Part shown: positions 19,601 to 41,928 of the stretch, piece by piece
Layout of the letters: the number at the start of each line of letters is the position of its first letter
Position numbering within the stretch: position 1 is the stretch's first letter
Source of the DNA: Herbidospora yilanensis
GTDB taxonomy: Bacteria > Actinomycetota > Actinomycetes > Streptosporangiales > Streptosporangiaceae
Reading direction: 5' to 3'
DNA: 64,000 nt
Assembly (NCBI RefSeq): GCF_001570565.1
Contig: NZ_BBXE01000020.1
Coordinates: 1-64,000, forward strand
Program-made: the position numbers and the translations under genes
Notes under the pieces: generated by a model
What the model was told of the DNA's origin: nothing
Seen by the model: the letters and a program-made list of their open reading frames with translations, nothing else
Database searches by the model: none

Positions 19601-22600
19601 GGCCGTCGCGGTCGAGCTCGAACTCGGCGCGCACGGGTTGCGCGGCCGGGTCGGTGACCAGGGCGTGCAGGGTCGGCGTCAGGCTCGTCGTGACGTTCGC
19701 CTGCTGTGAGGGCGTCACCTGGAGCTGGCTTACCACCGGGTTCGGGACGTCCACCACGGCCTGTTGCCAGTCGGACCACGCCGACTGGGTGGTGGCGGAG
19801 GCCGCCCGCGCCCGCCAGCGCACCTGCTGGCCGTCGGTCAGTGTCCCGGCGGGGATCGTCACGGTGGCCTGGCCGCCGGAGGCGACGGCGGCCGACGTGC
19901 CGGTCCAGACCTGATCGATCTCGAACTGCCCGGTCAGGTTCCCACCCGCCGGGTCGCTCACCGTCCCGCTCAGTTGCGGGGTGAGCGAGGTGATGGTGGT
20001 GACGCCGTTCACCACCTGAGCCGGCGCGGCGGCCGGCCCGGTGATCGCCGGGGCCGAAGCCGGACCGGCGGTGGTGACGGTGAGCGTGGGGGCCGGGCCG
20101 TAGCCCCAGTCGTCCTCGCCGGAGACGAAGACGCGGTAGTTGTCGTTGAGGTTGCTCTCGTTGGGATGCATCAGCACCAGGCCGTGGTTGGCGGCCCCGG
20201 CGGCCCAGTCTTGGACGATGCCGGTGATCGCCCACTCCATCGGCTGCACCCCGTCGGGGCAGGTCGTGCCGTGGCCGACGCGGTTGACCACCGCGTCCTC
20301 GGTGGTGGCGGCCGGCTTGTTGCCCCAGGTCAGGTTGAGCTCGTTGAACGCGGCCGTGAGCCGCCGCACCTGGATTCCCGGCCCGACCTGGACACCACAG
20401 TTCTGCGCTTCGAGGTTGGTCAGCGCCAGCTTGGCGTCGGTCACCGTCGCCCCGGCCAGACCCGTCGTGGCGAACCGCAGATGCGTGCGGGTCAGCTCCC
20501 CGTAGAAGCGGCCGGCCACCAACGTGCCCGCGGTCGGATCGGCCGGGAAGCCCGAGGTGTTGGACGACCACACGTCGACGTCGTCGTTCAACGGCAGGGT
20601 GACCGTCGGGTCCACCCGCACCGGATACGTCGTGCCCGGGTCGGTGAGGAACCCGTGATCGGGCCTGAGCACCAGCTCGGTCCTGCCGTTCTCGGTCACG
20701 ACGTCGGTGGCGATCACCTCACGGTCGGCCGCCTCCTTCGCGTCCCACATCACCGGCCGCGGCGCGGACGCCACCGTCTTCTTGCCGTCGGACAACAACA
20801 GGCGGCCGCCTTCGCCCTCGGTCAGGGCCATGCCCTCCGTTTCCACGCCGATCCGCAGTTCCAGCGGCTTCGCCGGGCGCTGCCGCAGGATCACGTCGTG
20901 CCGGAAGCCGGTCGGCAACACCGTGACGACCAGGTCGGCGCCCTCGCCGGCCGCGTCGGCGAAGGTGACCGTGTTCTTCCGGACCGTCGGCCGCTCCAGC
21001 GGAGTCGGCCAGCGAAGGGCGTAGGACCGGCCGTCGCCGGTGCTCATGGCGACGAACGGCCCCGTGCCGCCGGTGGAGACCTCCACGGAGACGCCCGCCG
21101 CCGGCGCCTTCGGCCGCAGCACGGCTTCCTGGTTCACCAGGTCGGTGTCGATCGGCACCCAGCCCTCACCTCGCCTGACCCGGACCGGGCCGGCGGTGAA
21201 CTCGGAGCGGAAGGTGCCGTCCGGCTGGGCGTAGGTGATGCTCGTGGCCGTGGTCGCGTCGGCCACCTCGACCGGCTCGCGCGACCGGGCCGCCTCGCGT
21301 GCGGCGGCGGCCTGCGCCAGGGACGGCTGGTTCGAGACCGCGTTCCCGTTCTCGCGGGCGACCCAGGAGGCGGTCTCGGTCAGGCCGGCGTCGTGGCCGT
21401 TGCCGGAGGAGTCGGCGGCGGTCGCTCCTTCTCCCTCGTCGAACGTCCAGTGCCCGGCGGCCCGCTTCAGCGTGGTGAACGACCACGTGTGGGTGTCCAT
21501 CGCGTTCTCGTAGGCGTCGACCGCTCCCGGAATCTCGGCGGTGTAGACGGTGCCCGGCTTCAACGGCCGCGCGGGGGTGAAGGTCATCACCGTGCCGGTC
21601 GCGTCGTTCGCGAACCCGCCCTCGACGACGGCGCCCCGCGGGTCCGTCAGCACGATCTCGACTTCGCCGACCTCCTCGCTGAACGTCGCCGCGACGGCGG
21701 TGTCCAGCGGCACGTCGACGGCGCCGTCGGCCGGGGTGGTCGACAACACCTTGGGCGGGGTCGTGTCGTCACCGTCGGGGTTGCCGCCGGTGTCGTCGGT
21801 CTGTTCTCCGGGGTCGGCCGGCGAGAGCAGGTCGGTCCCGATGAGGGAACCTCCGCCGTCCCTGCGCCGCGCGTTGGCGGCCACCAGCTCCGCGGTCACC
21901 GCCGGGGGCACCTCCCCGATCTCGGGCAGGTACACCGATCGCTCCAGGGCCTCCTCGTATTCGGGGATCGAGGTGAGCGGCTCGGCCGAGGTGAGGACGA
22001 CCGTCTCCCGTTGGGGCGGGTCGGGCATGACGAAGTCCACCGTCAGGATCGGCGGGTGCATCCGACCCCTGCAGTCCTCCAGCGGGGCCGTGCGGCAGCC
22101 GCCCGCCTCCTCGGGGCGGTAGCGCCGCCAGTTGCGCAGCTCGGACTCGTCGCCGGCGGTGAGCCGGATGCCGTGGTTGGTCTCACCGTCGACCCACGCC
22201 TGGACGATGACGTCCAGGGAGTGCGTCAGATCCCACTCGTAGGCCATCGCGCCGGTGCAGTCGGGGCTGTAGGCACCCGGCTCGTTGTCCGCGCCCAGGC
22301 TCGTGGTCGTCGGCTGGGCGCCCCATTCCAGCGACAACTCGTCCCACGTGGAGGTGATGCGCCGCGCGGTGATGCCGGTGCCGACCGATCCGCCGCAGGC
22401 GTTGGACAGGTAGTTCCACAGGTGCAGGTCGGCGTTGTCGACCGTGGCCCCCGCGAACGTGGCGGGGATGTTGGGGAACTTGAGGTAGCCGCGCCAGCGC
22501 TTGGCGACGTTGCTGGCGTAGGACTTGCCGACCACGATCTGGTCCTGGTTGAAGGTGTTCCAGCTGTCCTGGTAGTCGACGTCGTTGATCCAGGTGTCCA

Positions 22601-33294: not shown

Positions 33295-34560
33295 GTGATT
33301 GCTCGCCCCAATACCACTAAATCCGACATACGGCCATCAACGCGGAAAGTTCCCGCGCCGGCGTCCATGTTGGGCCCCGCGTTCGTCGCGGCCATCGCCT
33401 ACGTCGATCCGGGGAACGTGGCCACCAACCTGACCGCCGGGGCGACCCTCGGCTATCTGCTCGTCTGGGTCGTGGTGCTGGCCAGCCTGGTCGCGATCCT
33501 GGTGCAGTTCCAGGCGGCCAAGCTCGGCATGGCGACCGGGCGGAGCCTGCCCGAGTTGTGCCGCGAGCGGTTCGGCCGGCGCGGGAGCCTGCTGCTGTGG
33601 GCGCAGGCCGAGATCGTCGTGCTCGCCACCGACCTGGCCGAGTTCGTCGGGGCGGCCATCGGGATGCGGCTGCTGTTCGGCATGCCCGTGTGGTTGTCGG
33701 CGATCACCACGGCGGTGATCTCGCTGGCCCTGCTGGAGTTGCGGCGCAAGGGCCGCACCCGGCCGTTCGAGCTGATGAGCGCGGCGGCGCTGATGTTCGT
33801 CGGGGCCGGGGTCGGCTACGACATCCTCGCCACCGGGCACCAGTCGGCGAGCGGCCTCGCGGCCGGGCTGATCCCGAACCTGGGCGGGGCGGGCGCGCCG
33901 CTGCTGGCCATGGGCATCGTCGGCGCGACGGTCATGCCCCACGCGGTCTACCTGCACTCCGCGCTCGTCCAGGGGCGTGGGATGTCCACCGAGGCGGCCC
34001 GCGCGCGGCCGGCGCTGGTCCGGCGCATCCTGCGGTGGGACTGCTCGCTGGCGCTCGGCGTGGCCACGGTCGTCAACGTGTCGATGATCGCGCTCGGCGC
34101 CGGGCTCGGGGTGGCGAGCGGCGGCGCCTGGACCGGCGACCTGACCGCCGCCCACGCCGAACTCGCCGCCCGTGCGGGCGGGTTCGCCGCGCTGGCCTTC
34201 GCCGTCGCGTTGTTGTCGTCGGGGTTGTCGTCGTCGGGGATCGGCACGCTCGCCGGTGACGTCGTGATGCGGGGGTTCCTGAACGTGCGGGTGCCCGTCC
34301 ACGCCCGCCGGATCGTGACGATGACCCCGGCCGTGCTGGCGCTGCTGTCCGGGGTCTCGCTCACCGGCCTGCTGGTGCTGAGCCAGGTGGTCGTCTCGCT
34401 CGGCGTTCCGGTGGTGCTGTTCCTGCTGGTGTACTTCTGCCGCGACCACGACCTGATGGGCCCGCTGGTGAACGCGCCCCTCACGACCTGGGTCGCGGGC
34501 GGCGCGGCGGCGGTCGTCGCCCTGCTGGGCTGTTCGCTGCCGATCACGATGGTGTTGTGA
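33295..34560 (+). CDS. mntH: Nramp family divalent metal ion transporter
   Basis: A 421-residue Nramp transporter for Mn2+/Fe2+ uptake coupled to protons. The two metal-site motifs are present: DPGN in helix 1 (AAIAYVDPGNVATNLTAGA) and MPHAVYLHSALVQ in helix 6 (GATVMPH). About eleven helices follow the family pattern. The GTG at 33295 is chosen because AGGGA lies 7 nt upstream; an earlier in-frame start at 33208 lacks a ribosome-binding site. An AT-rich upstream region with a 15-bp palindrome suggests metal-dependent regulation. It is the only gene in its transcription unit. Confidence 0.9.
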   Translation: MIARPNTTKSDIRPSTRKVPAPASMLGPAFVAAIAYVDPGNVATNLTAGATLGYLLVWVVVLASLVAILVQFQAAKLGMATGRSLPELCRERFGRRGSLLLWAQAEIVVLATDLAEFVGAAIGMRLLFGMPVWLSAITTAVISLALLELRRKGRTRPFELMSAAALMFVGAGVGYDILATGHQSASGLAAGLIPNLGGAGAPLLAMGIVGATVMPHAVYLHSALVQGRGMSTEAARARPALVRRILRWDCSLALGVATVVNVSMIALGAGLGVASGGAWTGDLTAAHAELAARAGGFAALAFAVALLSSGLSSSGIGTLAGDVVMRGFLNVRVPVHARRIVTMTPAVLALLSGVSLTGLLVLSQVVVSLGVPVVLFLLVYFCRDHDLMGPLVNAPLTTWVAGGAAAVVALLGCSLPITMVL

Positions 34561-34577
34561 CCGTCTCCTTCTCGGCG

Positions 34578-35618
34578 TCACTTGCCCACGGGGTCGCGGG
34601 GATTGACGCGCGGCACGAAAAGCGGGTCGATCGGGGTGAACGGGAACTGCGGGAGTTCTCTCTCGGGAATGGCGAAAGTCGCCGCGAGGACCTCGCGTGA
34701 AAAGGCGGTCGCGGTGGCCCTGTACCCGATGTCGGCGGGCATCGGCTGGTCGAAGAAGATGAGGAAGTGGATCTCGTCGTCGCCGATGACCTCGATGTGG
34801 TGCGGGAAGGCGCGCGGCACGAAGTAGAGGTCGCCGGGGCCGAGCAGGTACTCGTCGAGGCTGAGGTCCGGGTCGAGGACGCGCATCCGGGCGTGGCCCT
34901 TGGCGACGTAGCCCATCTCGGCGGTGACCGGGTGCCAGTGCGGCTCCCGCATGCCGCTCTCCCTGACGCGCAGGGAGTACATGGAGATGTCGTCGAGGGC
35001 GGCCCAGAACTGGTGCCGCGCCATCCGGGCGTCGCCGTAGGAGTAGGTCAGCACCGGCGCCTGGCTCTCGATGTCGAACAGCTTGGCGTTGGGCAGCTTG
35101 GCGGTCGGCGTCACGTCGGCCGGGCCGGTGCGCCGGACGATCTGCTGGGCCGGCGACCGGTCGAACGCGGCGAACGCCGAGGCCTGGAGGTCGAAGGTGT
35201 TGCCGAGCACGGCGTCGGTCATCGCGGTGAAGCTGTCGCGTACCGAGAAGTGCCGCGGGCGCTCGCTGCGCAGGGCCAGCACGAGCTCGGCGCGGTCGGG
35301 CCCGATGTTCTCGATGTGGTAAACCGCGCCCGACTCGACGTGGTACATCTGCCCCGGCCGCACGACGAACGAGGAGAACGTGTCGGCGTTGCCGAGGATC
35401 GACACCAGGACGGTGCCCGAGACCACGTAGGCGAGCTGGTTGGCGTTGACGTTCCACTGCGGCTCGCGGATCGCGCCCGGCTCCAGCACGACCCTCTTCA
35501 GCGAGAGCCCGTCGAGGATCGGCAGCACCTTCTCGTCGACCACGGTGACGGAGCCCAGGTCGTTCTCGAACGTGGGCCGGACCTTCCCCAATGAGGTGAT
35601 GTGTGGCGACTTGCGCAT
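34578..35618 (-). CDS. Bicupin (oxalate decarboxylase-like) protein
   Basis: A 346-residue cytoplasmic protein with two cupin domains, as in oxalate decarboxylase/oxidase families. The C-terminal cupin keeps its metal ligands (REPHWHPVTAEMGYV, giving His, His, Glu; and His in FPHHIEV). The N-terminal cupin has lost three of four ligands: the motif reads REPQWNVNANQLAYV, so Gln54, Asn56 and Gln61 replace His, His and Glu. Only one metal site is therefore likely. No signal peptide. The enzyme activity, if any, is uncertain. It is transcribed away from the tRNA-like RNA and its operon. Confidence 0.82.
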   Translation of the reverse strand: MRKSPHITSLGKVRPTFENDLGSVTVVDEKVLPILDGLSLKRVVLEPGAIREPQWNVNANQLAYVVSGTVLVSILGNADTFSSFVVRPGQMYHVESGAVYHIENIGPDRAELVLALRSERPRHFSVRDSFTAMTDAVLGNTFDLQASAFAAFDRSPAQQIVRRTGPADVTPTAKLPNAKLFDIESQAPVLTYSYGDARMARHQFWAALDDISMYSLRVRESGMREPHWHPVTAEMGYVAKGHARMRVLDPDLSLDEYLLGPGDLYFVPRAFPHHIEVIGDDEIHFLIFFDQPMPADIGYRATATAFSREVLAATFAIPERELPQFPFTPIDPLFVPRVNPRDPVGK

Positions 35619-35758
35619 GTCTCTATCCCCCCGGACGCGAACTGTTTTCCCAGGTTAAGCAGCATGTGTCCGGCATTTCGGCAAGGACACGCGTCCGGCG
35701 GCCCGTGCTGTTTCCCGAAGATTGGGGGAACAAGATCTGAAATGTCGGAGATGTGCGC

Positions 35759-35764
35759 TAGCCT
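35759..35764 (+). promoter_or_regulatory. -10 box of the tRNA-like RNA and its operon
   Basis: TAGCCT, a good actinobacterial -10 hexamer, ends 7 nt before G35771, the first base of the RNA's outer stem. The -35 region is weak (TCTGAA around 35736). Confidence 0.5.
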
Positions 35765-35770
35765 TCCGGC

Positions 35771-35847
35771 GACACGGTCGTAGCGCAGAGGTCGTCGCGC
35801 CCCAAAGCGATGCGGAGGACGCCGGTTCGAATCCGGTCGGCCGTGTC
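35771..35847 (+). ncRNA. tRNA-like RNA lacking an anticodon arm
   Basis: Folding by eye gives a tRNA-like outline. A 10-bp acceptor-like stem pairs GACACGGTCG (35771-35780) with CGGCCGTGTC (35838-35847), one G-U included. TA follows, as at tRNA positions 8-9. A D arm has the stem GCGC/GCGC (35783-35786 with 35797-35800) and a loop containing AG..GG. A canonical T arm is GCCGG-TTCGAAT-CCGGT (35821-35837). Only 20 nt lie between D and T arms and they do not form a 5-bp anticodon stem; no U33-like base is placed, and no CCA is encoded. It is therefore not a decoding tRNA but resembles the tRNA-like part of bacterial Y RNAs. A -10 box sits 7 nt upstream and a T-rich ACTTTTGTT follows. It may be separate or part of the leader of the downstream gene. 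Confidence 0.6.
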
Positions 35848-35873
35848 ACTTTTGTTGCCGGAGGGGGACGCGC

Positions 35874-37202
35874 ATGGCTTCTGACGTGGAAACCTGCCTG
35901 CGCGTCCTGGCCGAGGCACGCGCGGCCGATCCCGGCGACGAGCGCTGGAGGCGGGTCCGCGAGGCCGCCGCGCAGGTCTACCGGGCGGACAAGAAGGCCC
36001 GCAAGGCGGCCCGCGACGCCGGCCGCCGTCAGCACGACGACCTCGTCAGCGCGGCCACCGAGCGCCACCGCGACCAGAACCCCGACTCCGCGCCGCCGGT
36101 CACTCCGGCCACGCGGTTGCGGCCGCTGGCCGGGACCCGGCGCTGCTACGTCTGCAAGGCCGTCTACGGCCAGGTCCACTCGGTCTACCACCTGCTCTGC
36201 CCGGCCTGCGCCGAGGAGAATCTGACCCGCCGCACCGCCCGCTGCGACCTGCGCGGACGCCGGGCGCTGGTCACCGGCGGCCGGGTGAAGATCGGCTTCC
36301 AGACGGCGCTGAAGCTGCTGCGCGACGGCGCCGAGGTCTTCGTGACGACCCGGTTCCCCGCCGACGCGGCCCGCCGCTACGCCGCCGTCCCCGACGCGGC
36401 CGAGTGGCTCGACCGGCTGCACGTCCACGGCGTGGACCTGCTCGACCTGCCGGGGGTCGCGGGCCTGCTGGAGAGCGTGCACGCGCGGTTCGACCATCTC
36501 GACGTGCTGGTCAACAACGCCGCCCAGACGATCCGCCGCCCGGCGGCCTACCACCGTGAGGTGCGGGCGGCCGAGAGCCTCCCGCTGGAGGGCCCGGCCA
36601 CCCGGATCAGCGTCACGACCGGCGTGTCCCCGGCCGCCCTCGCCCGTCCGGACGCCGCCCCCGGGGAGCTCGAAGCGCTCTTCCCCGCGGGTCTGCTCGA
36701 CGAGACCGGCGAGCCGCTCGACCTGCGCGACCGCAACAGCTGGAGCCTGCGGCTGCACGAGGTCGACGCCGCCGAGTGGCTGGAGGTGCAGCTCGTGAAC
36801 TCGTTCGCGCCGTTCCTGCTGACCTCGCGGCTCCGGGGGCTGCTGGAGGCCTCGCCGCACCCCGACCGGTACGTCGTGCAGGTGTCGGCGATGGAGGGCA
36901 GCTTCTCGCGGGCGAACAAGACCGTCCGCCACCCGCACACGAACATGGCCAAGGCCGCGCTGAACATGCTCACCCGGACCGCCGCCCCCGACTACGCGGC
37001 GAGCGGCATCCACATGAACAGCGTCGACACCGGGTGGTGCACCGACGAGCGCCCCCACCCGGAGAGGGCGGCGAGCCGCTTCCGGCCGCCGCTCGACGTG
37101 ATCGACGGGGCCGCGCGGGTGTACGACCCCGTCGTCCGGGGGGTCGGCGGCGACCCCGTCTCCGGACTCTTCCTGAAGGACTATCGACCGGTGGAGTGGT
37201 GA
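35874..37202 (+). CDS. Zn-ribbon short-chain dehydrogenase-like protein (first gene of five)
   Basis: 442 residues. An N-terminal helical, basic region (1-80) leads to a zinc ribbon with CxxC pairs at Cys91/94 and Cys109/112 (CYVCK ... CPAC). The SDR Rossmann domain starts near 125: the cofactor loop reads VTGGRVKIGFQTA and the NNAAQ motif is near 218. The catalytic YxxxK is altered: Lys360 is kept in TNMAKAAL, but the Tyr position is Thr356. A conventional dehydrogenase reaction is therefore doubtful; it may bind a nucleotide cofactor or RNA. The ATG at 35874 has a GGAGGGGG site 6 nt upstream and lies 26 nt after the tRNA-like RNA. The stop overlaps the LRR gene start (GTGA). Confidence 0.82.
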   Translation: MASDVETCLRVLAEARAADPGDERWRRVREAAAQVYRADKKARKAARDAGRRQHDDLVSAATERHRDQNPDSAPPVTPATRLRPLAGTRRCYVCKAVYGQVHSVYHLLCPACAEENLTRRTARCDLRGRRALVTGGRVKIGFQTALKLLRDGAEVFVTTRFPADAARRYAAVPDAAEWLDRLHVHGVDLLDLPGVAGLLESVHARFDHLDVLVNNAAQTIRRPAAYHREVRAAESLPLEGPATRISVTTGVSPAALARPDAAPGELEALFPAGLLDETGEPLDLRDRNSWSLRLHEVDAAEWLEVQLVNSFAPFLLTSRLRGLLEASPHPDRYVVQVSAMEGSFSRANKTVRHPHTNMAKAALNMLTRTAAPDYAASGIHMNSVDTGWCTDERPHPERAASRFRPPLDVIDGAARVYDPVVRGVGGDPVSGLFLKDYRPVEW

Positions 37203-38335
37203 CCGTGAAGCCTGTGCCCGTACGCTGCCCGGCGATCGAGCACCCCGACGTCCCCCCGGCCGAGGCGGCGGCTCTCGACCCGTTGCTCACCCGGCTGGCC
37301 GACACCCGCCCGGTCGCGGCCGACGAGGTCTTCCCGCTCGGCGCGCTGCGCCCCGACGGCCGGGTCGACCTGTGCAAGCAGGGCCTCGGCGCACCCGGCG
37401 CGGCCCGGCTGCTGCCGGTGGCGACGGCGTCGCCGCACGCCGTCCACCTCCTGCTGGGCACCAACGCCATCGGCGACGAGGGGGCGCGCGCGGTCGCGGG
37501 GGCGCTCACCGACGACCACCGCCTGCGCACCCTCTATCTCGGCTGCAACCGCATCGGCCCGGAGGGCACGGCGGCGCTGGCCGACCGGCTGAGCGGCGAC
37601 CAGAGCGTGCGCGCGTTGTGGCTCAAGCGCAACCCGATCGGCGAGGCGGGGGTGCGGGCGCTGGCGCAGATGCTCACCTGGAACAGCACGCTGCGCACCC
37701 TCGACCTGGTCAACACCGGCCTGTCGACGGCCTCGCTGGAGGTGCTGGTCACCGCCCTCACCAGCCGGGACCTCCCGCTGGAGCGGCTGTTCCTCGGCGG
37801 CAACGGCCTCGGCCCCGGCGTCGCGCCGCTGCTGGCGCGGCTGATCGGCGAGGGGGGCGTGCGGGAGCTCTACCTTCCGGCCAACCATCTGGGCGACGAG
37901 GGCGCGGCCGTGCTGGCCGCCGCGGCCGACCCGGCCCGCCCGGTCAGGCTGGGCCTCGGCGGCAACGGCGTCGGCCCGGACGGCGCGACGGCGCTCGCCG
38001 CCTCGCTCGACCGCATCGAGTCCCTCGACCTCGGCCGCCCGCCGTCGGAGCGCAGCCTCGGCGCCCCGGCCAACACCACCGGCGACGAGGGCGCGCACGC
38101 GCTGGCCGCCGCCCTGCCCGGCAGCCCGCTGCGCCGCCTGGAACTGCGCCACACCGGCCTGACCGGGCGCGGCGCGAAGAGCCTGCTGGACCGCGTGCCC
38201 GACGACACCCACCTGGAGTACGTCGGCCTCGGGCCCGGCCTGCCCCGCAAGGTGAAGCGGTCGTTCACCGCGCGCCTGCGCCCGGCCGGCCCCGGCCACC
38301 CCGACCTGGTCGCGATCGGCAGCCTCTACCGATGA
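37199..38335 (+). CDS. Leucine-rich repeat protein (RNase-inhibitor type)
   Basis: A 378-residue cytoplasmic protein with at least seven 27-29-residue leucine-rich repeats of ribonuclease-inhibitor type, roughly residues 75-345. Examples are LRTLYLGCNRIGPEGTAALA, VRALWLKRNPIGEAGVRALA, LERLFLGGNGLGPGVAPLLA and VRELYLPANHLGDEGAAVLA. Such horseshoe scaffolds bind proteins or other ligands. The GTG at 37199 overlaps the SDR stop (GTGA); GTG at 37205 is an alternative. The stop overlaps the ankyrin gene start (ATGA). Tight coupling means it is made in step with its neighbours, suggesting a complex. Confidence 0.88.
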   Translation: MTVKPVPVRCPAIEHPDVPPAEAAALDPLLTRLADTRPVAADEVFPLGALRPDGRVDLCKQGLGAPGAARLLPVATASPHAVHLLLGTNAIGDEGARAVAGALTDDHRLRTLYLGCNRIGPEGTAALADRLSGDQSVRALWLKRNPIGEAGVRALAQMLTWNSTLRTLDLVNTGLSTASLEVLVTALTSRDLPLERLFLGGNGLGPGVAPLLARLIGEGGVRELYLPANHLGDEGAAVLAAAADPARPVRLGLGGNGVGPDGATALAASLDRIESLDLGRPPSERSLGAPANTTGDEGAHALAAALPGSPLRRLELRHTGLTGRGAKSLLDRVPDDTHLEYVGLGPGLPRKVKRSFTARLRPAGPGHPDLVAIGSLYR

Positions 38336-39570
38336 CCTTCGACCGCGACGAACTGAGCCGCTGGCGGCAGGCCCGCCGTTACGCGGTCCCCCGCTGGATG
38401 ATCGAACAGGCCACGGAACGCCGCCTGGCCGGCGACTGGCAGGGGGCCTGCGCGGCCGCCGCCGTCGACGTCGCCTTCGACCCGGCCATGGCCGAGAAGG
38501 ACCCGGCGCTCGCCGACGACCTGCGGCACCTCGTGCCGGAGCTGCTGCGCTGGCACGCGCCCCGCGGCGGCAACGGCGGCGGCACCCTGGGCACCCACCA
38601 CCAGGTCACCCTGGCCCGGTACGGCGACACCGAACTGCGGGTGGTGACGCCCCAGCTCAGCGAGGGCCCGCAACGGCTGACGCTGGTCCTCGTCCCCGCC
38701 GAGGACGAGGAGGACCCGTACCTGACCACCCATGTCGACTGGACGTCGGCCCGGCACTTCTGGCACGCCCGGCACACCGCCGGACTCCGCGACGGCACGG
38801 ACGAGTCGCTGCCCGACCGCGTGCTGCTGGACGCCGGTCTGCTCACCCCCGACGACCTGCACCCGCTGGTCAGGGAGGCGCTCTTCCCCGGCCTTCCGCC
38901 GGTCGCGTCGGGCCCGCCGGAGCCGGCGCCGCCCGAGCCGGTCCGGGTGCGCTGCGGCGGGGCGTGGCACCAGGTCGTCTCCGGCGACGGCCGTCTCCTG
39001 CTTGAGCACAGCGACGAGGAACAGCGCCGTGAACGCGCCATGCGCGCCCTCGGCGGAGCCGTCTCCGGCTGCTTCGCGGTCGAACAGTCGTGGACGTCGG
39101 GCGAGGGCAGGCTGCCCCGGAGGCTGCGCGCCCAGCGCTGGGCGCTGTTCCTGCACGCCCAGCACGGCGACACCCCGGCGGTCGTCCGGCTCCTGGACGC
39201 CGGCGTCGACCCCCGGGTGCGCGACGGCCGGCAGCGCGGCCTGCTGCACGTGCTGCACCTCGTCGACCACACCGTGCTGCTGCCCCGGCTCCTCGCGGCG
39301 GGCCTCGACGTGAACGGCCTCGACTACCAGGAGCGCACCCCGCTGTTCCACGCGGTGGCCTCCTACGGCCCGCCCGCGCTGGTCGAGGCGCTGCGCGCGG
39401 CCGGGGCACGGATCGACGTGACCGACTGGGAGGGCTGGTCGCTGGCCGAGATCATCCGCCGCCGCCGGCGCAAGGACCTTGTCGCCCTGCGCGACGAGAT
39501 CGAGCGCGACCACCCCGGCATCGGCGTCGGTTACGAGAGCTACGACGACGAGGACGGGGACGACGATTAA
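38332..39570 (+). CDS. Ankyrin-repeat protein
   Basis: A 412-residue cytoplasmic protein. The N-terminal 285 residues (MTFDRDELSRWRQARRYAVPRWMIEQATERRLAGDWQGAC...) do not match a family I know; this part contains a W-rich core (HVDWTSARHFWHARH). The C-terminal 125 residues hold three to four ankyrin repeats (ALFLHAQHGDTPAVVRLLDAG, RGLLHVLHLVDHTVLLPRLLAAG, TPLFHAVASYGPPALVEALRAAG, SLAEIIRRRRRKDL) and an acidic Asp/Glu tail. The ATG overlaps the LRR stop (ATGA) and its TAA overlaps the start of the MoxR gene. A scaffold or sensor role in the same complex is likely but inferred. Confidence 0.83.
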   Translation: MTFDRDELSRWRQARRYAVPRWMIEQATERRLAGDWQGACAAAAVDVAFDPAMAEKDPALADDLRHLVPELLRWHAPRGGNGGGTLGTHHQVTLARYGDTELRVVTPQLSEGPQRLTLVLVPAEDEEDPYLTTHVDWTSARHFWHARHTAGLRDGTDESLPDRVLLDAGLLTPDDLHPLVREALFPGLPPVASGPPEPAPPEPVRVRCGGAWHQVVSGDGRLLLEHSDEEQRRERAMRALGGAVSGCFAVEQSWTSGEGRLPRRLRAQRWALFLHAQHGDTPAVVRLLDAGVDPRVRDGRQRGLLHVLHLVDHTVLLPRLLAAGLDVNGLDYQERTPLFHAVASYGPPALVEALRAAGARIDVTDWEGWSLAEIIRRRRRKDLVALRDEIERDHPGIGVGYESYDDEDGDDD

Positions 39571-40741
39571 CGACGACCTCGGCAACCTGGCCGCCGCCGA
39601 CGAGATCAACCGGCGGCTGCGGGTCCACCGCACCGAACCGGCCGCCAGCGCCCAGTTGGAGGCGCTGGCCCTGGCCGTGGCGGCGAACCTGCCGGTCCTG
39701 CTGTGGGGTGAGCCGGGCATCGGCAAGTCGGCCGGGCTGGAGCAGCTCGCCGCCGGGCTCGGGCTGCCGCTGGAGACGGTCATCGCGAGCGTGCACGAGC
39801 CGTCCGACTTCGCCGGCCTGCCGATCGTCGGCGACGACCCGGCGGTGACCGGGGTGCCGATGGCGCCGCCCGACTGGGCCGTGCGGGTGACCACGCGGGG
39901 CCGGGGGCTCGTCTTCTTCGACGAGTTGTCGTCCGCGCCGCCCGCCGTGCAGGCCGCCCTGCTGCGGGTGGTGCTGGAGCGGCGGGTCGGCAGTCTGCGG
40001 CTGCCGGAGCCGGTCAGGATCGTGGCCGCCGCGAACCCGCCGTCGAGCGCGGCCGACGGCTGGCATCTGAGCCCGCCGCTGGCCAACCGGTTCGTCCATC
40101 TGCGCTGGACGCACGACCCCCGGACCGTCGCCCGGGGGTTGGCGGGCACCTGGCCGGCGGCGCGGATCCCGTCGATCGACGCGGCGCGCATCCCCGGCGC
40201 GGTGGCGCGGGCCCGGGGCGCCGTCTCGGGCTTCCTCAGCGCCCGTCCGGGTCTGGCGCACCACCTGCCCGCCGACGCGGAGAGCCGGGGCGGGGCGTGG
40301 CCCTCGCCCCGGACGTGGGAGATGGCGCTGAAGCTGCTCGCGGTCGCCTACGCGAGCGGGACCGGCCGGGAGGCCCTCGCGGCGGCGGTGGTCGGCGCGG
40401 TGGGCGACGGCGCGGGCGTCGAGCTCATCTCCTACCTGGAGGAACTCGACCTGCCCGACCCCGACCGGGTGCTCGCCGACCCGGCCGCCTTCAAGCTGCC
40501 CGAGCGCGGCGACCGCCAGCTCGCCTTCCTGACCGCGGTCGTGGCGGCCGTGCAGGGCGACCTGACCCGGCGCCGCTGGGAGGCCGGGTGGGTGGTGCTG
40601 GCCAAGGCCGTCGACGCGGGCGTCCCCGACGTGGCGGCCCGCGCGGCGATGGACCTGGCCGCGATGCGCGACCTCGCCTGGCCGGTGCCGCCGGGCATCG
40701 ACGCGTTCGTCGACCTGCTCCAGCTCTCCGGCGCGCTCTGA
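39566..40741 (+). CDS. MoxR-type AAA+ ATPase
   Basis: A 391-residue AAA+ ATPase of the MoxR class. After a helical start (NLAAADEINRRLRVHRTEPA), Walker A reads LLWGEPGIGKSAGLEQ (about residues 46-56), Walker B LVFFDELSSAPPAVQ, sensor 1 VRIVAAANPPS, and the Arg-finger region LSPPLANRFVHLRW. No ATG or GTG is available in frame at the 5' end; the best candidate is ATT at 39566, overlapping the ankyrin TAA (ATTAA), with TTG at 39479 as the next option. MoxR ATPases act with VWA-domain partners as chaperones or remodellers; the next gene encodes one. Confidence 0.88.
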   Translation: MNDDLGNLAAADEINRRLRVHRTEPAASAQLEALALAVAANLPVLLWGEPGIGKSAGLEQLAAGLGLPLETVIASVHEPSDFAGLPIVGDDPAVTGVPMAPPDWAVRVTTRGRGLVFFDELSSAPPAVQAALLRVVLERRVGSLRLPEPVRIVAAANPPSSAADGWHLSPPLANRFVHLRWTHDPRTVARGLAGTWPAARIPSIDAARIPGAVARARGAVSGFLSARPGLAHHLPADAESRGGAWPSPRTWEMALKLLAVAYASGTGREALAAAVVGAVGDGAGVELISYLEELDLPDPDRVLADPAAFKLPERGDRQLAFLTAVVAAVQGDLTRRRWEAGWVVLAKAVDAGVPDVAARAAMDLAAMRDLAWPVPPGIDAFVDLLQLSGAL

Positions 40742-40746
40742 GGAAC

Positions 40747-41928
40747 ATGGACCGGGTGAAGTTGCTGGCCGCCCGTTATCGGGCGGCGGCCGATCGGCCC
40801 TATTTCGCCACCGCGCTGTACGCCCTCTCGATCGTCCCCAGCTCGCGGGTGCCCACGATGGGCGTCGACGCGCACTGGCGGTGCTACGTCTCCCCCGCGT
40901 TCGTCGACGCCACGCCCGTCGAGGAGCTGGCCGCCGTCTGGATCCACGAGGTCGCCCACCTGCTGCGCGACCACCACGCCAGGGCGGGGCGGTTGCCCCC
41001 GGCCGACCAGCGGGACCGGCTGCGCGTCAACGTCGCGCAGGACTGCGAGATCAACGACGACCTGCTCGCCGACCGGCTGCCGCTGCCGGCGGGCCGGATG
41101 GAGCCGCGCCTGTTCGGCCTGGCGCCGGGCCGTCTGTTCGAGGAGTACGTGCCGCTGCTGCCGCCCCACGAACATCCGCTCGACTGCGGCTCGGGCGCCC
41201 ACGGCCGTCCGTCCCCGTGGGAGATCGGCGAGGGCGCGCCCATGGTCGGCCCGGTCGAGGCCGAGTCGCTGCGCCGGCACACCGCCGAGGCGATGCGGGC
41301 CCACCGCCGCTCGCGGGGCACCCTGCCGAAGGGCTGGGAGCGGTGGGCGGAGCAGGTTCTCGAACCGGTCGTCGACTGGCGGCGGGTGCTGACGGGGGCG
41401 GTCCGCGAGGCGGTCGCCTGGGCGGGCGGCGCGGTCGACTACACCTACCGCCGCCCGTCGCGCCGGTCGGCGGCCATGCGGGGGGTGGTGCTGCCGAGCC
41501 TGCGCCGGCCGCTGCCCCGGGTGGCGATCGTGGTCGACACCTCCGGCTCGATGGGCGACGACGAGCTGGCCGCGGCGCTGGCCGAGGTGACGGGGGTGCT
41601 GCGCGAGGTGGGCGTGCACGGCAACCGGGTGACGGTGCTGGCGTGCGACGCCGACGTCCACGCCGTCTCGCGGGTGACCTCGGCCGAGCAGGTCACGCTG
41701 GCGGGCGGCGGCGGCACGGACATGCGCGTCGGCGTCACGGCGGCCCTGGCGGCGCGCGACCGCCCGAACGTGGTGATCGTGCTGACCGACGGCCACACGC
41801 CGTGGCCGGACGAGCCGGCGGCCTGCCGGCTCATCGCGGCCCTCATCGGTTCCGGGGCTCCCCCGCCGCCCGGGTGGGTGGAGACGGTCAGCGTGGGCGT
41901 CGTCTCGGCGGGCCGGGTGAGCGGGTGA
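40747..41928 (+). CDS. Metallopeptidase-like/VWA protein (DUF2201), MoxR partner
   Basis: A 393-residue cytoplasmic protein. The N-terminal DUF2201 domain carries a zinc-peptidase-like helix WIHEVAHLLRDHH (HExxH near residues 64-68) and QDCEINDDLL. The C-terminal von Willebrand factor A domain (about 255-385) has an intact MIDAS: VVDTSGSMGDDE, then GGGGTDMRVG and LTDGHTPWP. DUF2201/VWA proteins pair with MoxR ATPases, which here lies 5 nt upstream. The metal-peptidase site may be active or only structural. It is the last gene of the operon; a 10-bp hairpin follows. Confidence 0.88.
   Translation: MDRVKLLAARYRAAADRPYFATALYALSIVPSSRVPTMGVDAHWRCYVSPAFVDATPVEELAAVWIHEVAHLLRDHHARAGRLPPADQRDRLRVNVAQDCEINDDLLADRLPLPAGRMEPRLFGLAPGRLFEEYVPLLPPHEHPLDCGSGAHGRPSPWEIGEGAPMVGPVEAESLRRHTAEAMRAHRRSRGTLPKGWERWAEQVLEPVVDWRRVLTGAVREAVAWAGGAVDYTYRRPSRRSAAMRGVVLPSLRRPLPRVAIVVDTSGSMGDDELAAALAEVTGVLREVGVHGNRVTVLACDADVHAVSRVTSAEQVTLAGGGGTDMRVGVTAALAARDRPNVVIVLTDGHTPWPDEPAACRLIAALIGSGAPPPPGWVETVSVGVVSAGRVSG

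What the first reader, a model, noticed from the sequence alone, without database searches (positions are those of the whole stretch)
35771..35847. tRNA-like RNA without an anticodon arm at the head of an operon
The stretch has a 10-bp acceptor-like stem, an intact D arm and a canonical T arm (TTCGAAT loop), but the 20 nt where the anticodon arm should be do not form one. A -10 hexamer lies 7 nt before the first base and a T-rich stretch follows the last. Tandem retention of three arms and loss of the decoding arm is what is seen in the tRNA-like module of bacterial Y RNAs (YrlA) and in tRNA-like RNAs reported with RNA-repair loci. It could be a ligand for the proteins encoded next, or a leader structure bound by tRNA-processing enzymes.
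Basis: partly seen in the sequence, partly recalled or inferred. Interest (0 to 1): 0.88.

Follow-up and report, generated by a model that had tools for sequence, protein, structure and literature searches.

The report
DNA-damage tRNA mimics with variable anticodons
Upstream of a five-gene operon in a soil actinomycete sits a small RNA gene that copies the shape of a tRNA but has a disabled, fast-changing anticodon arm and what looks like a DNA-damage promoter; relatives carry sets of such mimics, which suggests decoys or sensors for enzymes that attack tRNAs.

Summary
Real, and larger than reported. Window 35771-35847 (Herbidospora) has a 10-bp acceptor stem, D arm, T arm and an almost unstable anticodon arm. 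It belongs to a clade-specific RNA family: in 126 distinct copies the D and T arms are nearly frozen (96%, 93% identity; partly imposed by the search pattern) while anticodon arms are hypervariable (108 distinct). Compensatory changes are abundant. Copies stand singly or in sets of up to five, mostly before SDR-LRR-ANK-MoxR-VWA operons or parts of them. Most have a -10 box placed to start transcription at the first base of the extended stem. Copies with non-canonical arms often carry the published PafBC DNA-damage motif (36/66, 0.9 expected); canonical ones do not (1/45). They do not look like working tRNAs (serine-type 7/7 without a long variable arm, alanine-type 14/16 without G3:U70), and they are not YrlA: the arm order is not permuted, and YrlA-like RNAs sit elsewhere in this genome. 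Best reading, inferred: DNA-damage-induced, trans-acting tRNA mimics, bound by the operon's proteins, that decoy or monitor anticodon nucleases. Expression, binding and function are untested; a cis-acting leader is the main rival.

The parts
35743..35764 (+). PafBC-type promoter: TGTCGG (35743-35748) - N10 - TAGCCT (-10 box, 35759-35764)
   Evidence: Exact match to the PafBC motif TGTCGG-10N-TA-3N-T printed in PMC8151990 (passages); listed as a genome hit; enrichment. That PafBC acts here is inferred.
35771..35847 (+). tRNA-mimic RNA. Acceptor 35771-35780/35838-35847; D arm 35783-35798; disabled anticodon segment 35800-35815; variable loop 35816-35820; T arm 35821-35837
   Evidence: Rfam tRNA 38.6 bits; family model R1 87.5 bits, best other hit in this genome 58.7 (an identical sequence was in the model's alignment); covariation
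35850..35856 (+). T-rich tract after the extended stem; possible 3' end or weak attenuator
   Evidence: Sequence; T enrichment after non-canonical copies (3.5 vs 1.7 T per 12 nt), none after canonical ones (1.9 vs 1.9)
35874..37202 (+). SDR-fold protein with four zinc-ribbon-like cysteines (C91, C94, C109, C112); at the position of the catalytic Tyr of YxxxK stands Thr356 (K360 kept)
   Evidence: Pfam adh_short 3.5e-18; these positions are invariant in 13 aligned homologues; the role of the Tyr is recalled
37199..38335 (+). Leucine-rich-repeat protein, repeats of the ribonuclease-inhibitor type
   Evidence: Pfam LRR_6 7.3e-20; best solved match ribonuclease inhibitor 1dfj, 2.5e-24; NLR proteins also match
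38332..39570 (+). ANK protein: conserved N-terminal region (RRYAVPxWMIEQAT...) without a Pfam family, plus C-terminal ankyrin repeats; also found as the only operon gene behind some copies
   Evidence: Pfam Ank_2 in residues 271-364; PADLOC candidate model PDC-M72A matches the ankyrin part, 1.6e-8; model pLDDT 87.7; N-terminal region has no PDB match at E<=0.001; co-occurrence
39560..40741 (+). MoxR-type AAA ATPase (start codon not settled)
   Evidence: Pfam AAA_5 8.2e-08; bpMoxR 4.3e-4, below its cut-off
40738..41928 (+). DUF2201 protein: metallopeptidase-like region plus VWA domain
   Evidence: Pfam DUF2201_N 1.3e-25, DUF2201 2.6e-19; no solved relative by sequence

Best explanation
A trans-acting family of tRNA mimics that belongs to an SDR-LRR-ANK-MoxR-VWA system. 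Shown by sequence: a tRNA-like fold under selection; a conserved D/T scaffold with a hypervariable anticodon arm; in most copies a -10 box placed to start transcription at the first base of an extended, paired acceptor stem; a PafBC-type DNA-damage element on many copies with non-canonical arms; close linkage to the operon. Inferred: the transcript keeps a closed, extended stem that would be hard to mature or aminoacylate, so it does not serve translation. DNA damage induces it together with the operon. The scaffold is held by the operon's proteins, and the anticodon arm is shown to, or withheld from, nucleases that cut tRNA anticodon loops. Copies with intact arms would be baits or sensors; copies with altered loops, like the one in the window, would be uncleavable competitors or dedicated ligands. 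The ribonuclease-inhibitor-type LRR and the ANK protein would bind RNA or nuclease, and the MoxR-VWA pair would remodel the complex.
For: Covariation 0/500. Among 126 distinct copies mean identity is 96% for D arms (123 of equal length), 93% for variable loop plus T arm, 51% for 17-nt anticodon arms (81 copies; loops 41%) and 69% for 16-nt arms (25 copies); 108 arms are distinct. 111/126 have TANNNT 9-17 nt before the extended stem; a stem extension of 2 bp or more is found in 106/111 with such a box and 1/15 without. PafBC-like element (YGTCSS, 9-11 nt before the -10) in 36/66 non-canonical copies with a -10 box (0.9 expected from shuffled upstreams) and 1/45 canonical ones (0.7 expected). 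The exact motif occurs 47 times in this genome, its backward control 3 times; genes behind some of them include UvrA, SbcD, SSB, a DNA polymerase III beta subunit and a methylguanine methyltransferase. Of 91 copies not followed by another copy, 80 lie within 450 nt (median 67) of SDR, LRR, ANK or MoxR. SDR loci with an LRR match have a mimic in 28/29 cases, those without in 4/20. Mimic pattern and ANK region co-occur in 42 of 297 genomes, OR 43. LRR matches ribonuclease inhibitor. Precedent: DNA damage triggers anticodon-loop cleavage in Salmonella, and the authors suggest that the YrlA tRNA-like domain might inhibit that nuclease (PMC7790460, passages).
Against: No expression, binding or cleavage data. 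No anticodon nuclease was searched for. 30 of 66 non-canonical copies with a -10 box lack the PafBC-like element, including one Herbidospora (L033). Gene-proximal copies are canonical in 27 of 80 cases. 11 copies have none of the five genes within 3 kb. 9 of 51 pattern-bearing genomes lack the ANK match and 24 of 66 ANK genomes lack the pattern. 17 of 49 SDR loci have no mimic above 60 bits. Many loci were collected through the SDR gene, which inflates SDR linkage; the regex that collected the 126 copies demands parts of the D and T arms, which inflates their identity. Species are related, so counts are not independent events.
Confidence: 0.42

Rival explanations
1. Cis-acting leader or attenuator: the tRNA-like fold followed by a T-rich tract controls read-through into the operon, and tRNA-binding or tRNA-processing proteins shift the balance.
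For: Copies lie directly before a gene (median 67 nt); T-rich tract after non-canonical copies only; in L044 copies precede SDR, ANK and MoxR.
Against: Most copies have their own -10 box, also inside sets of up to five; 11 copies have none of the five genes near; hypervariable anticodon arms are not needed for a terminator; T runs of 4 or more occur in the 12 nt after only 9 of 126 copies.
Confidence: 0.22
2. RNA antitoxin of a type III-like toxin-antitoxin pair: the mimic binds and silences the ANK protein (or another operon protein), which would act on tRNAs.
For: [mimic-ANK] is the smallest recurring unit and is repeated three times in tandem in L257; the RNA lies upstream of the protein gene.
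Against: The ANK N-terminal region matches no nuclease or toxin in Pfam, PADLOC or PDB folds (the only PADLOC hit lies in the ankyrin repeats); the five-gene form with an ATPase and an LRR is unlike type III pairs (recalled).
Confidence: 0.12
3. Functional accessory tRNAs with various anticodons that read the codons they display.
For: 56 of 126 arms have a canonical stem and 7-nt loop, 43 of them with U33; ARAGORN calls many of them tRNAs.
Against: Identity elements missing (Ser-type 7/7 without a long variable arm, Ala-type 14/16 without G3:U70); 70 of 126 arms are not canonical; the acceptor stem is extended by 2 bp or more in 107/126.
Confidence: 0.06
4. tRNA-derived mobile repeat or attachment-site debris.
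For: Many copies, some without the operon and some on Streptomyces plasmids, one of those beside an ISL3 transposase gene.
Against: Base pairs kept by compensation, recurrent position before the same genes, own -10 boxes. No search for integrases or target duplications was made.
Confidence: 0.03

Closest known systems
YrlA Y RNA with Rsr/Ro60 (rsr-yrlBA-rtcBA operon)
   Same: tRNA-like RNA encoded with a DNA-damage-linked operon; a nuclease-inhibitor role was suggested by its authors (PMC7790460, passages)
   Different: The YrlA model places the T arm before the D arm; here the order is D-anticodon-T, without TROVE or RtcB among the five proteins. This genome has separate YrlA-like RNAs at a TROVE locus
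tRNA-like RNA reported with Band-7/SPFH RNA-repair operons (Burroughs and Aravind 2016; recalled, paper not held)
   Same: tRNA-like RNA beside a predicted RNA-damage operon
   Different: No Band-7 or ligase among the five proteins; its sequence could not be compared
MoxR-vWA ternary conflict systems (PMC8195603, passages; PMC7159879, listing and two passages of its reference list)
   Same: MoxR ATPase plus VWA partner with a system-specific third component, in multicellular bacteria
   Different: VWA is DUF2201 with a metallopeptidase-like region; further genes are ANK, LRR and SDR; the word tRNA is absent from the text of PMC8195603 and occurs in PMC7159879 once, in a reference
Bacillus cereus tRNA-Other pseudo-tRNA (PMC3399842, abstract and outline)
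   Same: A tRNA-like element that does not serve translation
   Different: Thought to be part of larger, iron-responsive RNAs beside a genomic island; the abstract mentions no family of variable copies
PafBC regulon of mycobacteria (PMC8151990 and PMC11804915, passages)
   Same: Promoter element TGTCGG-N10-TANNNT
   Different: The passages seen describe DNA-repair genes; here the element precedes a tRNA mimic

Membership tests
Translational tRNA | Cloverleaf with D, anticodon and T arms | tested here: not met
   D, T and acceptor present; anticodon arm disabled in the window copy; canonical in 56 of 126 copies
Translational tRNA | Identity elements for charging: G3:U70 (Ala), long variable arm (Ser); both recalled | tested here: not met
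   Tested on relatives: Ala-type 2/16 have G3:U70; Ser-type 0/7 have a long arm
Translational tRNA | Mature 7-bp acceptor with 3' CCA, charged | not testable with these tools
   Extended stem of 10 bp here; maturation and charging need experiment
YrlA (RF02553) | Match to the covariance model | tested here: not met
   No hit in 34000-38000 at E<=1
YrlA (RF02553) | Permuted order, T arm before D arm | tested here: not met
   Order is D then T; order of the YrlA model seen
YrlA (RF02553) | TROVE/Ro60 partner encoded next to it | tested here: not met
   TROVE lies on another contig, C27; none among the five proteins
PafBC-controlled promoter | TGTCGG-N10-TA-N3-T | tested here: met
   35743-35764; motif from PMC8151990
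PafBC-controlled promoter | pafB-pafC present in the genome | tested here: inconclusive
   Two adjacent WYL genes on C19 look like pafB-pafC (my reading); no dedicated profile test
PafBC-controlled promoter | Induction by DNA damage through PafBC | not testable with these tools
   Needs RNA-seq or northern blot
MoxR-vWA ternary conflict system | Adjacent MoxR and VWA genes with a system-specific third component | tested here: inconclusive
   MoxR and VWA adjacent in the window and in relatives; bpMoxR hit below its cut-off; which of ANK, LRR and SDR would be the third component is not known
MoxR-vWA ternary conflict system | Known third component (VMAP, iSTAND, TERNS3) or effector domain | tested here: inconclusive
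   None among the Pfam or PADLOC hits listed; not searched with dedicated profiles
Type III toxin-antitoxin | RNA upstream of a nuclease toxin gene | tested here: not met
   ANK N-terminal region matches no nuclease

The most novel reading that the evidence does not exclude
A hypervariable RNA surveillance system: each mimic displays one anticodon arm on a constant tRNA scaffold, so that a set samples the targets of many anticodon nucleases. DNA damage or attack induces it, and the ANK/LRR/SDR proteins with the MoxR-VWA machine sense binding or cleavage of the mimics and respond. This would be an RNA-based guard or decoy repertoire for the translation apparatus.
Probability: 0.28. Interest if true: 0.95.

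Novelty: categorically new. Interest (0 to 1): 0.85.

Why it matters
A family of genes that an automatic finder reads as ordinary tRNAs appears to be a separate, non-translational RNA class with a conserved scaffold and a hypervariable anticodon arm, tied to a DNA-damage-type promoter and to a protein system of unknown function. If the reading holds, it links DNA damage to tRNA attack in actinomycetes through a testable RNA, and tRNA counts in these genomes include mimics. The ANK N-terminal region would be a domain without a known family.

Tried and rejected
Chance or decayed tRNA: rejected by covariation. YrlA membership: rejected. The Rfam guanidine-III match at 37105-37160 is sub-threshold (20.5 of 36 bits). 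The ARAGORN tRNA-Ala at 21260 is most likely false: it lies antisense inside a 2282-codon ORF. A phylum search with model R1 at 1e-12 was useless as a census: 325/396 genomes match, many at 66-75 bits in genomes far from this clade, probably ordinary tRNAs (not checked one by one). The census rests on the sequence pattern instead (15/394 class genomes; 51/297 family genomes; backward control 0 in the rows listed), which is strict and misses divergent copies. SDR homologues of Bacteroidota (25 loci, L137-L161, some with little upstream sequence) carry no mimic or tRNA call. Two Virgisporangium loci show no clear mimic (39.9 bits in L124, none in L125). Fold search of the whole ANK protein: the 50 matches shown are ankyrin-repeat proteins; the N-terminal region alone finds nothing at E<=0.001. 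No match of the RNA region in phages; ANK not found on plasmids. Rows dropped: one ordinary tRNA-Gly (L037) and two identical rows before alignment A1; one copy (L056) rejected; 15 of 141 regex hits as duplicates. Copies found only by the model (for example in L043, L053, L130) are not in the 126. 'Non-canonical' includes arms with a single mismatch, so the class border is soft: searches count five pairs with a 7-9-nt loop as canonical (58 yes, 68 no), five pairs alone (60, 66), five pairs with a 7-nt loop or a 9-nt loop whose ends pair (56, 70).

Full report
OBSERVATION. The stretch 35771-35847 carries a 10-bp acceptor-like stem, a D arm, a canonical T arm and 16 nt in place of the anticodon arm. 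Rfam tRNA scores it 38.6 bits, lowest of the 57 tRNA hits listed for the genome. Thermodynamics alone would not convince: the free fold is not a cloverleaf and the z-score is -1.22. The anticodon segment alone folds at -0.1 kcal/mol; arms with five pairs in other copies average -6.4 (n=60).

RELATIVES. The SDR gene downstream was found at E<=1e-30 in 49 of 150 genomes of the family, and I fetched 49 flanking stretches. With the family model (below), 32 of these 49 loci have at least one mimic above 60 bits: 28 of the 29 loci with an LRR match and 4 of the 20 without. Named relatives with a mimic include Acrocarpospora, Actinomadura, Microtetraspora, Micromonospora, Catellatospora and Dactylosporangium, and Catenuloplanes with a copy 4 kb before the SDR; two Virgisporangium loci have none that is clear. 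Of 49 copies collected for alignment 47 were distinct. The structure holds in 93.0% of cells against 80.4% in shuffles, with 148 two-sided changes against 45.7; no shuffle of 500 reached either. The alignment was not made from the structure, but the structure was named after seeing it. Relatedness inflates such counts; slid versions, which keep relatedness, give at most 33 two-sided changes.

A SEPARATE RNA FAMILY. A covariance model (R1) gives the window copy 87.5 bits and the best other hit of the genome 58.7; a copy identical to the window's was in the model's alignment. A sequence pattern of the scaffold hits 51 of 297 family genomes and 15 of 394 class genomes, with no backward-control hit in the rows listed. 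Over 126 distinct copies (141 regex hits, 15 duplicates dropped) mean pairwise identity is 96% for the D arm (123 copies of equal length), 93% for variable loop plus T arm, 65% for acceptor strands, 51% for 17-nt anticodon arms (81 copies; loops 41%) and 69% for 16-nt arms (25 copies); 108 arms are distinct. The regex demands parts of the D and T arms, so their identity is partly imposed; it leaves the anticodon arm free. In 56 copies the arm is canonical, with anticodons such as CCA (10), GCT (7), GGC (6), GCC (6), AGC (5), CTC (4); 43 of 56 have U33. Of the other 70, 66 have fewer than five pairs in the standard register and 4 have five pairs with a 5- or 8-nt loop. The window copy and its Herbidospora sisters are of the altered kind, and the sisters differ mainly in the loop and the outer stem pairs.

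NOT WORKING tRNAs. All 7 serine-type copies have a 5-nt variable loop; 14 of 16 alanine-type copies lack G3:U70 (that these are identity elements is recalled). A stem extension of 2 bp or more is found in 106 of 111 copies with a -10 box and in 1 of 15 without. So individually transcribed copies would begin at the first base of an extended stem, whereas the copies without a box, perhaps co-transcribed, mostly keep 7-8 bp. Start points are inferred from the -10 position, not mapped.

PROMOTERS. TANNNT lies 9-17 nt upstream of the extended stem in 111 of 126 copies, with a peak at -13. Copies with non-canonical arms often carry YGTCSS 9-11 nt before it: 36 of 66, 0.9 expected from 200 rounds of shuffled upstreams; canonical copies 1 of 45, 0.7 expected. 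The window has the exact form, TGTCGG-N10-TAGCCT. PMC8151990 gives TGTCGG-10N-TA-3N-T as the PafBC motif (passages), and PMC11804915 describes PafBC as activated by single-stranded DNA (passages). In this genome the exact motif occurs 47 times, its backward control 3 times. I looked behind 30 of the 47, the window's own among them, and tested ten chosen proteins by Pfam: these include UvrA, an SbcD-type nuclease, an ATPase that I read as RadA-like, a methylguanine methyltransferase, SSB and a DNA polymerase III beta subunit; several of the 30 are not recognisable DNA-repair genes. Two adjacent WYL genes resemble pafB-pafC (my reading). So PafBC control is likely but untested. L033, a Herbidospora, lacks the motif.

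SETS AND GENES. Of 91 copies not followed by another copy, 80 lie within 450 nt (median 67) of a homologue of SDR (59), LRR (11), ANK (9) or MoxR (1); 11 have none within 3 kb. In the subset found by pattern rather than through the SDR (L220-L259, 55 copies) the next element is SDR in 14, LRR in 10, ANK in 7, another copy in 17 and none of the five in 7. L165 and others have LRR-ANK-MoxR-VWA without SDR; L257 has three [mimic-ANK] units in tandem. Sets reach five copies (L237). The order in sets varies: in L061 and L245 the gene-proximal copy is non-canonical behind canonical ones, in L230 and L235-L237 the farthest copies are canonical and the nearer ones not, while sets such as L038, L055 and L068 are canonical throughout and L037, L241 and L255 non-canonical throughout; 27 of 80 proximal copies are canonical. 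The PafBC-like element is present in 28 of 36 non-canonical and 1 of 23 canonical copies that directly precede the SDR, in 4 of 11 before LRR, and in 1 of 6 non-canonical and 0 of 3 canonical copies before ANK. Across 297 genomes mimic pattern and ANK region co-occur (42 both, 9 mimic only, 24 ANK only, 222 neither; p 3e-25, not corrected for kinship).

PROTEINS. SDR: four zinc-ribbon-like cysteines and Thr in place of the catalytic Tyr are invariant in 13 homologues, 8 from Actinomycetota and 5 from Bacteroidota, so an ordinary dehydrogenase is doubtful. The 25 Bacteroidota loci have no mimic. LRR: ribonuclease-inhibitor type; the repeats also match NLR proteins, so inhibition of RNases is only suggested. 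ANK: confident model, N-terminal region without a PDB match or Pfam family; a PADLOC candidate-defence model matches its ankyrin repeats, which says little. MoxR and DUF2201-VWA: Pfam; weak, sub-cut-off hits of MoxR to the AAA part of RtcR reflect the ATPase fold.

MECHANISM. I take the RNA to be a trans-acting tRNA mimic induced by DNA damage and held by the operon's proteins, acting as decoy, competitor or sensor for anticodon nucleases. Support: features at odds with translation, own promoter sites, a damage-type element on copies whose loop is altered, variability concentrated in the part that such nucleases cut, and the precedent of DNA-damage-triggered anticodon cleavage with a proposed inhibitory role for YrlA (PMC7790460, passages); RloC is a further anticodon nuclease proposed to respond to DNA damage (PMC2610378, passages). 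The nuclease, the binding and the outcome are inferred. A cis leader is the strongest rival.

NOVELTY. Searches for tRNA-like with MoxR/vWA/SDR, DUF2201/MoxR/tRNA, Band-7/SPFH, ankyrin/Streptomyces/anticodon, PafBC, anticodon nuclease/decoy and pseudo-tRNA/ankyrin terms listed no paper that I recognised as describing this system (listings only, and one search showed 10 of 49, 12 of 18). The held library lacks most subscription papers, and one relevant paper, Burroughs and Aravind 2016, is not held. I rate it categorically new because no known system that I could compare combines a set of tRNA mimics with hypervariable anticodon arms, a damage-type promoter and this operon; the themes of tRNA-like RNA and MoxR-vWA are known.

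Noticed in passing
G000:C27, loci L324 (2530-2762, -) and L325: A TROVE (Ro60-like) gene with two tandem YrlA-like RNAs (36.3 and 33.3 bits, below the gathering score of 69) on another contig of the same genome.
   Followed up: partly
L164, L166, L167, L221, L224, L226, L228, L231, L239, L251; plasmid loci L320-L323: Members of the mimic family without the operon genes within 3 kb; five of the eleven such copies have a CTCCAAA loop (anticodon CCA) and a 6-bp anticodon stem, as have three of four looked at on Streptomyces plasmids. Locus-tag gaps in three plasmid records suggest that RNA genes are annotated there.
   Followed up: partly
G1001:C1:497213-522511 and G951:C233: Long tandem runs of ANK paralogues; in G1001 the mimic set lies at the upstream end of the run.
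   Followed up: no
window 38332-39570: ANK proteins of several Herbidospora, like this one, lack a segment of roughly 140 residues that most relatives have in the middle.
   Followed up: no
L165, L222, L225, L227, L229 upstream regions: Copies in another family share a different promoter context, GCTATGATC at the -10 and TGATCGA or TTCGAAC upstream, possibly another regulator.
   Followed up: no
window 21260-21349: ARAGORN tRNA-Ala call that lies antisense inside a long ORF, most likely false.
   Followed up: partly
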